64,000 bases of DNA from contig CAJJBE010000001.1 of the NCBI GenBank assembly GCA_905182335.1, positions 248,001 to 312,000 on the forward strand, in the 5' to 3' direction. Every line of letters begins with the position of its first letter. Within the stretch, counting starts at the first letter, position 1. Source of the stretch: Flavobacteriales bacterium UBA4466 (GTDB taxonomy: Bacteria > Bacteroidota > Bacteroidia > Flavobacteriales_D > Crocinitomicaceae). A program made the translations under genes and the position numbers. Positions 24,099 to 32,338 of the stretch are shown here, one piece after another. The notes under the pieces were generated by a model, which made no database searches, was not told the DNA's origin, and saw only the letters and a program-made list of their open reading frames with translations.

Positions 24099-24854
24099 AT
24101 GTCTAAAATAAATGTACTTGTAGTTGAAAATGAATCCATTGTTTCGAAGGACATTCAACACAGCCTTAAAAAACTAGGTTATAATGTTGTTGGAGCTTCC
24201 TCAACAGGAGAATTAGCGATTGAGTTAGTGAGATCAACGAGCCCTGACATTGTATTAATGGACATAATGTTGAAGGGTGATATTAATGGTATTGATACTG
24301 CTAAAATAATTAAAGAAAATTATTCTACTCCAATTATTTTTATTACAGCTTATGCGGACGAAGCTACTTTATCTAAAGCAAAATTATCTGAACCATCTGG
24401 GTATATAATTAAACCATTTAAAGAAATTGATTTACATACAACAATTGAAATAGCTATTTATAAAAACAGTAAAGAGCAAGAGAAAATAAAAGAAAGAGAG
24501 CTTTTATTTTCAATTATTGAAAATAAAGAAAGTGGAAATGATTTTATTTTTGTTAAACACAAGAGTAAATTAGTGAAACTACGAACAAATGAAATTCTAT
24601 ATATAGAAGCTCTAAAAGATTATGTTGTTATTCACTCTATAAACATAAAATATACAATTCACTCCACAATGAAAGAAATTGAGCGTAAAATGGGGAAAGA
24701 AGAATTCTTAAGGGTTCACAGGTCTTATATTGTTCGTGTTGATAAAATAGCCACTATTGAATATCCAAACTTAACAATAGAAAAATTAGAAAAAAAAATA
24801 CCAATAGGAGGATCTTATAAAAATATTTTAAATAAACGGATTAAACAGGTTTAA
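24099..24854 (+). CDS. LytTR-type two-component response regulator (orphan)
   Basis: A 251-residue regulator. The receiver domain (about 4-120) has the phospho-acceptor D55 in IVLMDIML, acidic E10, the Thr in FITAYAD and Lys in YIIKPF. After a short linker, the LytTR DNA-binding domain (about 150-250) shows ILYIEALKDYVVIHS, FLRVHRSYIVRVDKI and IPIGGSYK. No sensor kinase is adjacent, so the partner is elsewhere. The gene itself is very A+T-rich, like the island before it. Its last 14 bases overlap the 3' end of convergent rnr. Repeats in the upstream island could be its own binding sites. Confidence 0.92.
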   Translation: MSKINVLVVENESIVSKDIQHSLKKLGYNVVGASSTGELAIELVRSTSPDIVLMDIMLKGDINGIDTAKIIKENYSTPIIFITAYADEATLSKAKLSEPSGYIIKPFKEIDLHTTIEIAIYKNSKEQEKIKERELLFSIIENKESGNDFIFVKHKSKLVKLRTNEILYIEALKDYVVIHSINIKYTIHSTMKEIERKMGKEEFLRVHRSYIVRVDKIATIEYPNLTIEKLEKKIPIGGSYKNILNKRIKQV

Positions 24855-27057: not shown

Positions 27058-27582
27058 ATGAATAAAAGGGTAGAAAAAGTGCTTAATGATCAAATTGAGA
27101 AAGAGGCGTCATCATCACAGTTTTATTTAGCAATGGCCTCTTGGGCTGAGGGAGAAGGTTTAAGCGGTACCGCAAAGTTTTTATACACACACTCTGATGA
27201 AGAGAGGTTTCACATGTTGAAACTTGTGAAGTTTGTAAACGAAAGAGGAGGCGACGCCATTATCGCGGGTCTAAAAACCCCCCAAAAGGAATTTAAATCA
27301 CTAGAAAGCGTGTTTAGGTTATTGTTAAAACACGAGATTATGGTAACAGAAAGCATAAACAATCTTGTAGATGTTTGCTTACAGGAAAAAGACTATACAA
27401 CTCACAACTTTATTCAGTGGTATGTATCTGAACAACTAGAAGAAGAAGCGTTAGCGCGCACAATTTTAGATAAAATTATGCTTATAAACGGAGACAACGC
27501 GGGGCTTTATATGTTTGATAGGGACCTTGAAAATGCAACAATACAAACAAAGCCATCAAGCGGAGGATCTTTTGGGGAGTAG
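27058..27582 (+). CDS. ftnA: Bacterial ferritin (iron storage)
   Basis: A 174-residue four-helix non-haem ferritin that oxidises Fe(II) and stores it in a 24-mer shell. Ferroxidase ligands are all in place: E16, Y23, E49, H52 (HSDEERFH), E93, Q126 and E129 (SEQLEEE). It ends in a Gly/Ser-rich tail. Divergent from rnr with a 78-base spacer, and followed after 18 bases by the large sensor gene, so read-through is possible. Confidence 0.94.
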   Translation: MNKRVEKVLNDQIEKEASSSQFYLAMASWAEGEGLSGTAKFLYTHSDEERFHMLKLVKFVNERGGDAIIAGLKTPQKEFKSLESVFRLLLKHEIMVTESINNLVDVCLQEKDYTTHNFIQWYVSEQLEEEALARTILDKIMLINGDNAGLYMFDRDLENATIQTKPSSGGSFGE

Positions 27583-27600: not shown

Positions 27601-30600
27601 ATGAAGGTTTGTTTTTTATATATAATGGTTTTTCTTTTTTTAACGGAAAGCTATGCGCAAAAGGACTATAGGTTTAAAAACTACACAATCAACAACGGGC
27701 TTTCACAAAGCTCAGCAACAACAATTATACAGGACGACCTTAACGCTCTTTGGGTGGGAACTCAAGATGGGTTAAACCGTTATGACGGAAGGGTGTTTGA
27801 AATTTTCACCTCAGACGACACTGAAGGCTTAGAAAGCGAGTACATTTTGTGCTCTCACAAAGATAAAAAAGGAAACCTTTGGTTTGGCACAAGTAAAGGG
27901 CTTACCAAATACAACTTTTCCACAGAGAGGTTTAAAACATACACAACTAAAAGAGGAGCACCAATACGCATAGAGGATATCACCGAAGACGACACAGGCA
28001 GCCTTTGGGTTGCCACAACAGATTTTGGGGTTTTTAAGCTTGAGGGCAACTCAGGAACCCTTAAAAGCCCCCTTTTTTTTATGCCGTCAAAAAAAACAAC
28101 CAACATTGAGTTTGTTAAGAAGGGCTTGATCGTTATTTCAACAGAAGATAAAGGTGTTTTTTTGTGCGACACAAAGAACAACAAGGTCACCCTAATTGAG
28201 GTGAAACAAAAAAAAGGACTTCCGCTTGTCGTTAACAAGTTAATACCGGGCGGTAAAAACGTGATATTGCTAGCAACGAACAGTGGGGTTTTTGAGACAA
28301 ACTACCACACACAAAAAAGCAAGCTCCTTTTCGCGGGGCCAGACCAACAAAACGTTTCAGATGCCTACTTTGAAAAAGGGGTGGGCTGGCTTGTTTGTAC
28401 AAAAAACAACGGGCTATTTATTATTAACGAAAAAGGAGTGGCTCAGCATAGCACTGAAGACGTTTTTCAAAGAGCATCGCTGCTTTTTAATGAGCTAAAC
28501 TGTATTTACAAAGATGTTTCAGGAACTTTTTGGATTGGCTCTCAACGAGGGGTTTCAAGTTTTAACCCACTATCAAGGGGGATACTTGGTGTTGGGCCAA
28601 GCGGGGATTTACACAAAGGAATACCAACGGCAAGTGTTTGGAGTTTTGAAGAAACAGCAAGTTCAGTTTTTATAGGAACAGAAAACGCTGTTTCGCAATT
28701 AGCGAAAAAAAAAGGAACGTTTATTCAATATGAAAGAAAAAAACTGCTTCAAGACGGAAAAGGAGGAGAAAGGGCGGTATTGGCGCTAAAGGCAATTTCA
28801 GAGACGCACCTGCTTGTCGGTTGTGTTGACGGGCTGTTTGATTTAAAAATAAAAGGCTCCGGACACGAGTTCATAAAAATAGAAACAAAAGGGCTTAACC
28901 GCGCCTACTCTATTGTTCACTGGAAGGATGATTTTTATTGGGTTGCCACAAAAAAAGGCGCGTTTTTGTACGATGTAAAAAAACAGAAGGTAGAGGTGTT
29001 TGTTCATGACCCAAACAATAAAACAAAAACAATATCTAAAGGTGTTTGCAGGCTGGTTTATAAGGACCTTGATGGTAGTATTTGGTTTACAACAAGTGTC
29101 GGCGGGCTAAACCGCTTAGTAGAAACAGAAAAGGGACTTACTATTATTCCATACAAAGACAATAAAGCAATAAAAGAGGTTTCCACAGAATACATTACCT
29201 CAATTAATAATGTTAAAAAGAATATTTACTGGCTGGGGACTATGGGCTCAGGGTTGTTGCGTTGGGACTCAAGCTTAAAAAAAGTAGAACTTTTTAATAA
29301 ATCGAAAGGGCTTCCAAACAACGTTATTTATGGAGTTCTTTCCGATGGAGAAAGCGGGCTTTGGCTAAGCACAAACAAAGGTGTTTGTAATTTTAATCCA
29401 AAAACAAAAAAAACAAAAAACTATACGGAGGCAGACGGCTTAATGAGTAATGAGTTTAATCTTGGCGCTCACATGATAACAAGAGAAGGTGTCCTTTATT
29501 TTGGAGGAATATATGGATACAACCACTTTAAACCAGAGGAATTAGTTTCAAACAAGAAAGACATTAATGTTGTTTTTTCTAAACTAAAGATTGATGGCGA
29601 CTGGCTTAAACCAAACGATAAGGGCTCTCCGTTAACGAAACCTATTTTTTTAACAGGGGAGCTTAACCTGTCATATAAGCAAAGAAGTTTTACAATTGCC
29701 TTCCAGTCATCAGATTTAAGCGGCCCAAAGAAAATAAACTATAAATATCTTCTTGAGGGGTCTAATGAGGGCGAGATACTCTTGGGACCGTATAACGAAA
29801 TACACTTCAATGCTCTTTCGCCCGGCTCGTACATACTTAAGGTTTACGCAAGGCTTGCTGACGGAACGTGGAGCAGCCGTCCGGCAGTATTAAAAATAAC
29901 AATAGGGATGCCGTTTTGGGGAAGGTGGTGGTTTTTGTTGGCCTGCATCTCTTTTTTAGTTTTTTCTATTCGTTTGTTTGTTCGCCAACGAACAGAAGCG
30001 TCTCGCAGAGAGCAGGTTCGTTTAGAAATGAAGGTTAGCGACAGAACCAAAGAATTAAAAGCTCAAAGCAAGAAGATTGAGCGACAGAAAGAAAAAATTG
30101 AAGAGGAGAGAAACAATGTTGTCCTTCAACAAGGTCTACTTCAGCAAGAAAAAGACAAAACGGAGGAGCTTCTAAAAAATGTGCTTCCTACAGCCACAGC
30201 TGAAGAGTTGAAAAGAAATGGAAAAGCGAGAGCCCGAGCCTATAAAACGGTTTCGGTAATATTTACAGACTTTGTTGGGTTCACCAAGGTGTCAGATCAA
30301 ATGCCGGCAACCGAGCTTGTGAAAAAGCTAGATGTTTATTTTACCAAATTTGATGAGATTATAGTAAATAACAATCTAGAGAAGATAAAAACAATAGGGG
30401 ACGCCTACATGTGTGCAGGCGGCGTTCCCGAGAAAAACACCACAAACCCACTTGACGCATGTTTGGCTGCGCTTCAAATACAAGCATATATGTTTAAACG
30501 AAAAAAAAAGGCTATTACGAATGGGGGAGATCACTGGGCGCTACGCCTAGGCATTAATACAGGAGACGTAATTGCGGGTGTTATTGGCTCAGAACGCCTT

Positions 30601-31464
30601 GCTTTTGATGTGTGGGGAGCTACAGTCAACCATGCACAGAGAATGGAAATGCTAGGGGAAGCAGAAAAAGTAACGATTACCGGGTCTACCTTTTCGTTTA
30701 TTGAACCCTTTTTTGATTGTGTTTTTAAAGGAAAAGCTCAGACAAAAAGTAGGGGTTTTATCGATATGTATGTCGTCAATCAGATTAAACCTGAGCTTTC
30801 AGTGAAAGGAGAGGGTGTTTTTCCGAATGAAAAGTTTAACCAACTGGTTAAACTTTACCGCTATAACCCAATAAAATATTATAAAGCGGAGCGACACATA
30901 ATGAAAGAGCTAGAGGCGGGCCTTCCGACAGCACTACACTATCATAGTGTTGCCAAGACAAAAGATGTTGTCCTTTCTGTTGAGCGGCTTGCCTTAGCAG
31001 AAGGTGTTACAGACGAGGGGTTGTTTTTGTTAAAAACAGCTGCATTATATCATAATGCAGGCTTTTTGGGGGAATACTTTAAAAACAAAGAAACGGGCGC
31101 AAGGTTAGCTGATGAGTTTTTGCCTCGGAACGGGTATACCCCTCGGCATATAAAAATAATAAAAGAGCTTATTTTCGTAATCAAAAACCCCCACGGCCCC
31201 ACCACGAAGTTAGAAGAGGTTATTTGTGACGCGAACCTTAACTATTTAGGAAGAAACGAGTTTCATCTTATTTCTAATAAGCTTAGAAACGAGCTTAATG
31301 AGCAAGGGGAGGGGTGGTCAGAAAAAAAATGGGATGAGTTACAGGTGTTATTATTAAAAAATCACAGATATTTCACAAAAACCGCAAAGAAAAATCACAA
31401 CAAAAAAAAGGCGCAAAACCTGCAGGAAGTATTATGGAGGCTTCAAAGAGATGAGTATAAATAA
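27601..31464 (+). CDS. Multidomain sensor: two-component-type beta-propeller, Y_Y_Y domain, TM helix, class III adenylate cyclase and HD-like domain
   Basis: A 1287-residue protein. A signal peptide (ending ESYAQ) leads into Reg_prop propeller blades (GLSQSSATTIIQDD, LWVGTQDGLNRYDG, NLWFGTSKGL and more) to about residue 680. A Y_Y_Y-type domain (about 700-765) precedes one membrane helix (about 772-795). A coiled coil (795-870) connects to a cyclase domain (about 883-1060) with metal Asp D890 (FTDFVGFTK) and D934 (KTIGDAYM). The ATP-selecting Lys in IKTIGD and Asp in FDVWG, and N/R in TVNHAQRM, indicate an adenylate cyclase. The last 180 residues look like an HD domain: H1113/H1115, then H1151-N1152 (normally HD), then D1210 in DANLNYLGR. 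Extracellular signal in, cAMP out, is the likely logic. It may be co-transcribed with ferritin. Confidence 0.9.
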   Translation: MKVCFLYIMVFLFLTESYAQKDYRFKNYTINNGLSQSSATTIIQDDLNALWVGTQDGLNRYDGRVFEIFTSDDTEGLESEYILCSHKDKKGNLWFGTSKGLTKYNFSTERFKTYTTKRGAPIRIEDITEDDTGSLWVATTDFGVFKLEGNSGTLKSPLFFMPSKKTTNIEFVKKGLIVISTEDKGVFLCDTKNNKVTLIEVKQKKGLPLVVNKLIPGGKNVILLATNSGVFETNYHTQKSKLLFAGPDQQNVSDAYFEKGVGWLVCTKNNGLFIINEKGVAQHSTEDVFQRASLLFNELNCIYKDVSGTFWIGSQRGVSSFNPLSRGILGVGPSGDLHKGIPTASVWSFEETASSVFIGTENAVSQLAKKKGTFIQYERKKLLQDGKGGERAVLALKAISETHLLVGCVDGLFDLKIKGSGHEFIKIETKGLNRAYSIVHWKDDFYWVATKKGAFLYDVKKQKVEVFVHDPNNKTKTISKGVCRLVYKDLDGSIWFTTSVGGLNRLVETEKGLTIIPYKDNKAIKEVSTEYITSINNVKKNIYWLGTMGSGLLRWDSSLKKVELFNKSKGLPNNVIYGVLSDGESGLWLSTNKGVCNFNPKTKKTKNYTEADGLMSNEFNLGAHMITREGVLYFGGIYGYNHFKPEELVSNKKDINVVFSKLKIDGDWLKPNDKGSPLTKPIFLTGELNLSYKQRSFTIAFQSSDLSGPKKINYKYLLEGSNEGEILLGPYNEIHFNALSPGSYILKVYARLADGTWSSRPAVLKITIGMPFWGRWWFLLACISFLVFSIRLFVRQRTEASRREQVRLEMKVSDRTKELKAQSKKIERQKEKIEEERNNVVLQQGLLQQEKDKTEELLKNVLPTATAEELKRNGKARARAYKTVSVIFTDFVGFTKVSDQMPATELVKKLDVYFTKFDEIIVNNNLEKIKTIGDAYMCAGGVPEKNTTNPLDACLAALQIQAYMFKRKKKAITNGGDHWALRLGINTGDVIAGVIGSERLAFDVWGATVNHAQRMEMLGEAEKVTITGSTFSFIEPFFDCVFKGKAQTKSRGFIDMYVVNQIKPELSVKGEGVFPNEKFNQLVKLYRYNPIKYYKAERHIMKELEAGLPTALHYHSVAKTKDVVLSVERLALAEGVTDEGLFLLKTAALYHNAGFLGEYFKNKETGARLADEFLPRNGYTPRHIKIIKELIFVIKNPHGPTTKLEEVICDANLNYLGRNEFHLISNKLRNELNEQGEGWSEKKWDELQVLLLKNHRYFTKTAKKNHNKKKAQNLQEVLWRLQRDEYK

Positions 31465-31479
31465 CCTCTCCTTCTTTGT

Positions 31480-32301
31480 TTATCCATTAAAATCAACAGA
31501 CAGAGTGTTTACACCCTCAATAGGGTTCACTATAAGTGCGGGGATCTGCGCATCATTTGTGATGATATATTCTTCATGTGTCGCGGTTAAAACACCAAAC
31601 AAGTTGTTTTTGTTTAGGTTCATAATTGCAATTAAATCAGCATCAACATTGACCGCGTGCTTAACAACTTCTTTATCGAACCCGGCCCTAGGAAGAATCT
31701 TGGCTGTTACAACAACATCCCTTTCAGCAAAGTATTTTTCAGCAAACAAAATATTTCCTTTTACCCTGTGTTTTAAGAATTCATCAGACTCTTCAGGTGT
31801 AACAACGTGTACTTTAGACTTAAAGTAGCGCGCAATATTTGCAACGATAGCAAGTTTTTGTTTTGTTTCTTTGTTTAAGTCTAGCGGCACAACAATATCG
31901 CTATACCCCGTTTCTTTCGCCGTTTTTTCTTGAACCACAACAAAAGGAACTGAAGAGTGAGTAATTACTTTTAATGCATTCATTCCTGTGATTCGCTGCC
32001 ACCCATGTGTGCCGTGTGTGCCCATAAATATTAGTTCAGCATGATGCTCAGCGGCAAACTCTCCAATGTCTTTAAAAATGTTTCCTATCCGTACAAACGG
32101 AAGGATTTTCACAACAGTTTCGGTTTGTGATATTATATCTTGTAACATTACCTCTGCTTTGCGAATATCTTTGCTTTTACCTACGACATGAAGTAAAAAA
32201 ACAATAGCGTTCAAGTGAGCGGCGGCAGCAAGCGCGTGCCCTAAGGCAATATTAGAAACCAGAGTAAAGTCGTGTGGGACAATAAAGTTTTTAGTTTTCA
32301 T
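31480..32301 (-). CDS. Universal stress protein, tandem UspA domains
   Basis: About 273 residues; I start at the ATG giving MKTKNFIVPHDFT (32301), since the frame upstream (to 32331) adds an atypical start. The first UspA domain (about 1-135) carries the nucleotide-loop stretch FMGTHGTHGW; the second (about 145-273), beginning with YSDIVVPLDLN, is less conserved in its binding loop. Such tandem proteins bind ATP or lipid-like ligands and respond to stress; the specific role is unknown. Its 3' end is 15 bases from the convergent cyclase gene. Confidence 0.88.
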   Translation of the reverse strand: MKTKNFIVPHDFTLVSNIALGHALAAAAHLNAIVFLLHVVGKSKDIRKAEVMLQDIISQTETVVKILPFVRIGNIFKDIGEFAAEHHAELIFMGTHGTHGWQRITGMNALKVITHSSVPFVVVQEKTAKETGYSDIVVPLDLNKETKQKLAIVANIARYFKSKVHVVTPEESDEFLKHRVKGNILFAEKYFAERDVVVTAKILPRAGFDKEVVKHAVNVDADLIAIMNLNKNNLFGVLTATHEEYIITNDAQIPALIVNPIEGVNTLSVDFNG

Positions 32302-32330
32302 AATGAAGGGCCAATGTTTAGGGTAACACA

Positions 32331-32338
32331 CAAATATA
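32331..32338 (-). promoter_or_regulatory. Possible -7 box of the UspA gene
   Basis: Minus-strand TATATTTG, a perfect TAnnTTTG element 29 bases before the chosen ATG; it supports the downstream start codon. No TTG at the usual spacing. Confidence 0.4.

What the first reader, a model, noticed from the sequence alone, without database searches (positions are those of the whole stretch)
27601..31464. Propeller-adenylate cyclase-HD sensor with an altered HD active site
The protein joins an extracellular Reg_prop/Y_Y_Y sensor, usually seen with histidine kinases, to a complete adenylate cyclase with ATP-specific Lys and Asp. The C-terminal HD-like domain has H1151-N1152 in place of HD, and N1212 where relatives I recall have D in the DADLDYLGR motif. 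The HD domain may be a non-catalytic regulatory module rather than a phosphodiesterase, so one protein could sense, make cAMP and regulate itself.
Basis: partly seen in the sequence, partly recalled or inferred. Interest (0 to 1): 0.6.

Follow-up and report, generated by a model that had tools for sequence, protein, structure and literature searches.

The report
Adenylate cyclase sensor with dead phosphohydrolase
This is a membrane sensor that makes the messenger cAMP; the family is common in its bacterial order, but in this one species the attached HD phosphohydrolase domain has lost four residues that all 215 other copies examined keep, so it has almost certainly stopped working as an enzyme and offers a natural test of what the domain does.

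Summary
Window 27601-31464 (+) encodes a 1287-aa protein: signal peptide, Reg_prop propellers, Y_Y_Y, one TM helix, coiled coil, class III adenylate cyclase with all six catalytic residues, and a C-terminal HD-fold domain. Pfam does not detect the HD, but a 38%-identical paralog in the same genome passes the Pfam HD cut-off, and an AlphaFold model (pLDDT 93) best matches HD hydrolases, YpgQ and cyclic-nucleotide PDEs. The architecture is not rare: it is almost universal in the family (Crocinitomicaceae by most named homologs) and spread through Flavobacteriales, usually directly downstream of a ferritin gene. The HD lesion is the unusual part. K1119 and N1152 remove two of the four predicted metal ligands. 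The HD evolved fast on this branch while the propeller did not and the paralog shows no acceleration, yet fold and frame are kept. Best reading: a lineage-specific pseudoenzyme on a working cyclase. What the intact HD hydrolyses, and whether the dead one regulates, is untested. No CRP-type protein was found here.

The parts
27601..31464 (+). propeller-adenylate cyclase-pseudoHD sensor protein, 1287 aa
   Evidence: intact ORF; orthologs with conserved synteny
27601..27660 (+). N-terminal signal peptide (residues 1-20, MKVCFLYIMVFLFLTESYAQ), by inspection
   Evidence: hydrophobic N-terminus; no signal-peptide predictor was run
27661..29700 (+). periplasmic Reg_prop beta-propeller region (about residues 21-700)
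   Evidence: PF07494 58.6 bits; PDB 4a2l/3v9f sensor domains E 2e-78 / 2e-55
29719..29904 (+). Y_Y_Y domain (residues 707-768)
   Evidence: PF07495 48.7 bits
29926..29982 (+). single transmembrane helix (residues 776-794)
   Evidence: hydropathy maximum 2.1 over 19 residues
29986..30204 (+). coiled-coil / signalling linker (about residues 796-868)
   Evidence: sequence inspection
30232..30780 (+). class III adenylate cyclase catalytic domain (residues 878-1060); D890, K930, D934, D1003, N1010, R1014
   Evidence: PF00211 143.8 bits; residues listed
30841..31461 (+). degenerate HD domain (residues 1081-1287)
   Evidence: AlphaFold2 pLDDT 92.9, Foldseek best hits 2pq7, PDE5, YpgQ; homologous to paralog HD
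30955..30957 (+). K1119 in place of the first metal-ligand His
   Evidence: AAG; His in all 215 homologs
31054..31056 (+). N1152 in place of the Asp of the HD dyad
   Evidence: AAT; Asp in all 215 homologs
31234..31242 (+). N1212 and N1214 in place of the 2nd and 3rd Asp of CDADLDYLGR; D1210 kept
   Evidence: AAC and AAC; Asp in all 215 homologs
27058..27582 (+). ferritin gene 18 bp upstream, probably co-transcribed; conserved neighbour
   Evidence: PF00210 132 bits; same position in 62 of 89 distinct ortholog loci with enough flank
31480..32331 (-). universal stress protein gene (283 aa), convergent; partly conserved neighbour
   Evidence: PF00582 65.6 bits; same place in 33 of 79 loci with enough flank

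Best explanation
A one-component transmembrane receptor: a periplasmic propeller/Y_Y_Y sensor, through one TM helix and a coiled coil, controls a dimeric class III adenylate cyclase that makes cAMP. In the ancestor and in all other relatives examined a C-terminal metal-dependent HD phosphohydrolase is attached, most likely acting on a nucleotide linked to the cyclase reaction (cAMP itself, or a nucleotide or diphosphate). In this lineage alone the HD has lost two of four metal ligands and two more invariant Asp residues, and remains as a folded, non-catalytic module. The receptor is now a synthesis-only device, while the soluble REC-cyclase-HD paralog keeps an intact HD. Shown: architecture, cyclase residues, HD homology, lineage-specific residue loss, faster HD evolution, retained frame and predicted fold. 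Inferred: cyclase activity, loss of hydrolysis, identity of the substrate, any remaining regulatory role.
For: Domains and cyclase residues. Paralog with intact HD over the Pfam cut-off and 38% identity. 215 distinct homologs all HHHDDDD against HKHNDNN here; 160 of them come from profile searches that do not select for the motif (the window's own HD still scores 321 bits there). Sister species G018 (support 1.0) is intact. Tip branch lengths window/G018: propeller 0.258/0.327, cyclase 0.168/0.064, HD 0.548/0.120; the window is 1st for HD/propeller ratio and 4th of 70 for HD/cyclase. The window deviates at 10 of 61 strongly conserved HD positions, against at most 6 in any other; 4 of the 10 are catalytic, hypergeometric P 0.011. 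The REC paralog's HD is not accelerated. YpgQ metal ligands H29, H58, D59, D124 with H25 nearby (PMC8177086) match the spacing of 1119, 1151, 1152, 1210 and 1115. Intact-ortholog model hits HD hydrolase 2pq7 (E 2e-4), YpgQ, PDE2 and PDE5.
Against: No assay exists. One genome only; no second sequence of this species was available. The cyclase is also faster than in G018, so relaxed constraint may not be confined to the HD. Some HD proteins tolerate non-canonical ligands (PMC8177086). Fold matches to PDEs are distant (best PDE E about 4e-3) and cannot fix a substrate.
Confidence: 0.65

Rival explanations
1. The HD is drifting without function, a recently disabled vestige, possibly because cAMP signalling itself is decaying in this small genome, which has two cyclases but no recognised cNMP-binding protein.
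For: HD branch 4.6 times longer than in the sister species, cyclase branch also 2.6 times longer. No PF00027 in the genome, while 58 of 60 relatives have one. The block that holds a CRP-type gene in G018 lacks it here although it is assembled.
Against: Frame intact; HD nonsynonymous divergence (pN 0.19) far below synonymous (pS 0.73) against G018; 51 of 61 conserved positions kept; predicted fold as confident as that of the intact ortholog. Six cyclase residues intact. G151 also lacks PF00027 yet keeps an intact HD. The paralog is unaffected. Synonymous saturation prevents a clean dN/dS test.
Confidence: 0.2
2. The HD keeps or has changed catalysis with other ligands, for example one metal held by H1115, H1151 and D1210.
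For: H1115, H1151 and D1210 are kept; HD sites can use non-canonical ligands (PMC8177086).
Against: Lys replaces a metal His and Asn the Asp of the defining HD dyad, and the two neighbouring Asp are also gone; ligand substitutions inactivate YfbR (PMC8177086).
Confidence: 0.08
3. Sequencing or binning artefact.
For: Single assembly of about 92% completeness; no independent copy.
Against: Four separate codon changes, one of which (CAC to AAG against G018) needs two base changes, in an intact frame, within a generally diverged HD and in conserved synteny.
Confidence: 0.04

Closest known systems
Propeller-cyclase-HD orthologs of Crocinitomicaceae and other Flavobacteriales (Fluviicola-like MAGs, Brumimicrobium, Lishizhenia)
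   Same: same domain order, size about 1300 aa, synteny with ferritin, 52-67% HD identity within the genus
   Different: all have the intact HHHDDDD HD site
REC-cyclase-HD paralog of the same genome (L002:817-2514, 565 aa)
   Same: cyclase-HD homologous, 38% identity
   Different: soluble with a receiver domain; HD intact and over the Pfam cut-off
YpgQ-type HD phosphohydrolases (B. subtilis YpgQ, PDB 5dqw; 2pq7)
   Same: fold and spacing of the metal site
   Different: stand-alone active enzymes; two of four metal ligands are missing here
Class I cyclic nucleotide phosphodiesterases (PDE2, PDE4, PDE5; HD superfamily)
   Same: fold similarity, stronger for the intact ortholog
   Different: larger domain; sequence identity only 11-16%; no sequence-level match found
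Bacteroides propeller (hybrid two-component) sensor kinases, PDB 4a2l and 3v9f
   Same: periplasmic propeller plus Y_Y_Y
   Different: output is a cyclase, not a histidine kinase

Membership tests
Class III adenylate cyclase | Guanylate_cyc domain over the curated cut-off | tested here: met
   143.8 bits against 21.9
Class III adenylate cyclase | two metal Asp, adenine Lys and Asp, transition-state Asn and Arg | tested here: met
   D890, D934, K930, D1003, N1010, R1014
Class III adenylate cyclase | makes cAMP | not testable with these tools
   needs an assay
Reg_prop / Y_Y_Y sensor | both domains over cut-off, periplasmic, followed by a TM helix | tested here: met
   (signal peptide by inspection only)
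HD superfamily (fold and descent) | HD-domain homology | tested here: met
   via the paralog and fold; direct Pfam HD match absent
Catalytic HD phosphohydrolase | H...HD...D metal ligands | tested here: not met
   H1119K and D1152N; H1151 and D1210 kept
Catalytic HD phosphohydrolase | measurable hydrolysis | not testable with these tools
   needs an assay
CRP-dependent cAMP pathway | cNMP-binding regulator in the genome | tested here: not met
   no PF00027 match in a 92% complete assembly; only a sub-threshold HTH_Crp_2 fragment, 20.6 bits against 27

The most novel reading that the evidence does not exclude
The family is a two-way messenger device, with cyclase and cAMP-degrading HD in one receptor (a cAMP counterpart of GGDEF-EAL proteins), and in this lineage the degrading half has been switched off and kept as an allosteric regulator, in a cell that reads cAMP without any CRP-type protein, for instance through the neighbouring universal stress protein.
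Probability: 0.12. Interest if true: 0.6.

Novelty: new variant of a known kind. Interest (0 to 1): 0.35.

Why it matters
The intact family, nearly universal in one bacterial family, could pair synthesis and breakdown of a nucleotide in a single receptor, and no description of it turned up in the literature searched. This natural loss of the HD active site, beside an intact paralog and an intact sister species, makes the HD's role directly testable: compare cAMP output of the two natural versions.

Tried and rejected
Pfam and phmmer on the HD alone gave nothing; resolved through the paralog and fold. The idea that HD loss goes with loss of cNMP-binding proteins was tested and rejected: G151 lacks PF00027 but keeps the HD. 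The idea that degenerate HDs are common in this architecture was rejected (0 of 215). dN/dS per domain is inconclusive because synonymous sites are near saturation. The Foldseek hits alone are not significant for the window HD (best E 3.6e-3) and were used only with the paralog evidence. The profile search of the PDB gave 2pq7 at E 0.05 and chance troponin C hits. Literature searches for cyclase-HD or propeller-cyclase fusions found nothing relevant. The 125-aa ORF at 31451-31828 lies almost wholly antisense to the Usp gene and has no domain match; treated as spurious.

Full report
Check of the observation. The ORF at 27601-31464 (+) encodes 1287 residues without interruption. Pfam finds Reg_prop (58.6 bits), Y_Y_Y at 707-768 (48.7 bits) and Guanylate_cyc at 878-1060 (143.8 bits). 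The first 20 residues look like a signal peptide and the strongest hydrophobic stretch is at 776-794. The propeller matches solved Bacteroides sensor-kinase ectodomains (4a2l, E 2e-78) and the cyclase matches membrane and soluble adenylate cyclases. The six residues expected of an ATP-using class III cyclase are present: D890, K930, D934, D1003, N1010, R1014.

The HD domain. The last 207 residues match no Pfam family that matters and no PDB sequence. The genome has exactly one other PF00211 protein, a 565-aa REC-cyclase-HD protein (L002). It is 38% identical over cyclase plus HD and its HD passes the Pfam HD cut-off, 28.5 against 22 bits. AlphaFold2 gives the window HD a mean pLDDT of 92.9. 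Foldseek's best PDB matches are the HD hydrolase 2pq7, PDE5 and YpgQ. The intact G018 ortholog gives the same relatives with better E-values (2pq7 2e-4, then YpgQ, PDE2 and PDE5). A profile of the family aligns the YHxxxHT, HD and DADLDYLG motifs onto 2pq7, at a weak E of 0.05. YpgQ binds its metal with H29, H58, D59 and D124, with H25 near the site (PMC8177086). Spacing places residues 1119, 1151, 1152, 1210 and 1115 of our protein at those positions.

The lesion. The window reads YHSVAKT, YHNAGF, CDANLNYLGR; relatives read YHSxxHT, YHDAGF, CDADLDYLGR. K1119 and N1214 are two more, and K1119 takes out a second predicted metal ligand. Across 215 other distinct homologs all seven positions are H-H-H-D-D-D-D; the window has H-K-H-N-D-N-N. 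Of the 215, 160 came from profile or protein searches of whole genomes (family, genus and order samples), which do not select for the motif: the window's own HD still scores 321 bits in such a search. The other 55 came from a motif-based scan, which is biased towards intact sites. In the 34 genomes of the genus every other propeller-type HD that could be read is intact; the N-terminal part of one (G135) could not be aligned and its C-terminus is masked.

Evolution. The closest ortholog is G018, same genus, support 1.0, with an intact HD at 67% identity. With topology fixed, tip lengths for window and G018 are: propeller 0.258 and 0.327, cyclase 0.168 and 0.064, HD 0.548 and 0.120. The window ranks first for HD-to-propeller ratio and fourth of 70 for HD-to-cyclase, so the acceleration is marked but not unique in kind. 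The window deviates at 10 of the 61 positions that are at least 98% conserved in propeller-type HDs; the next worst sequence deviates at 6. Four of the ten are catalytic (hypergeometric P 0.011). The paralog of the same genome is not accelerated. Against G018 the HD has pN 0.19 and pS 0.73: not a freely drifting sequence over the whole interval, but saturation and the unknown date of the loss prevent a firm statement.

Surroundings. Upstream, 18 bp away on the same strand, is a ferritin gene; before it, on the other strand, RNase R; downstream, convergent, a universal stress protein. Ferritin is directly upstream on the same strand in 62 of 89 distinct ortholog loci with enough flank, and the stress protein directly downstream in 33 of 79. 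This fixes orthology and hints at a shared function with ferritin, not tested. cNMP-binding domains (PF00027) are absent from this assembly but present in 58 of 60 relatives. In G018 one CRP-type gene lies behind an asparaginase gene; here that block is assembled and the CRP gene is missing. Mycobacterial universal stress proteins bind cAMP (PMC11107214), so the neighbour is a candidate reader of cAMP; this is a lead only. The genome is about 92% complete, so absence is not proof.

Taxonomy. The family assignment is therefore an inference.

Mechanism. Best reading: extracellular signal to propeller, through Y_Y_Y, TM helix and coiled coil to the cyclase dimer; cAMP made; HD attached but catalytically dead in this lineage. 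That intact family members degrade a nucleotide is inferred from the invariant metal site; that the nucleotide is cAMP is a guess supported by fusion to a cyclase, by fold similarity to PDEs, and by the fact that plant YpgQ-like HD proteins have been reported to hydrolyse cAMP or cGMP (PMC8431786). Whether the dead HD regulates is open.

Novelty. Each part is of a known kind. The fusion appears undescribed in the searched open literature (subscription papers and preprints were not searched), but it is routine in its order. The lineage-specific inactivation is a new variant.

Noticed in passing
window 27058-27582 and ortholog loci L038-L077, L109-L188: A ferritin gene sits directly upstream of the propeller-cyclase-HD gene on the same strand in 62 of 89 loci; a functional link between iron storage and this cAMP receptor is possible.
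   Followed up: partly
G000 whole genome; G151: Two genomes of the genus with adenylate cyclases have no PF00027 protein, while 58 of 60 relatives do; what reads cAMP there is unknown.
   Followed up: partly
window 31480-32331 (-): A 283-aa universal stress protein is the convergent neighbour in 33 of 79 loci; such proteins bind cAMP in mycobacteria.
   Followed up: no
L263, L265, L267, L282, L284, L287 (genus g22 of the same family): Cyclase-HD genes of the propeller type whose open frame is only about 525-555 aa, starting just before the TM helix: the propeller has been lost or split off while the HD stays intact.
   Followed up: partly
L002:817-2514 (-): The only other cyclase of the genome is a soluble REC-cyclase-HD protein with an intact HD, also conserved through most of the family.
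   Followed up: yes
window 24099-24854 (+): LytTR response regulator gene close upstream of the RNase R gene; not a conserved neighbour of the cyclase in the loci compared.
   Followed up: no
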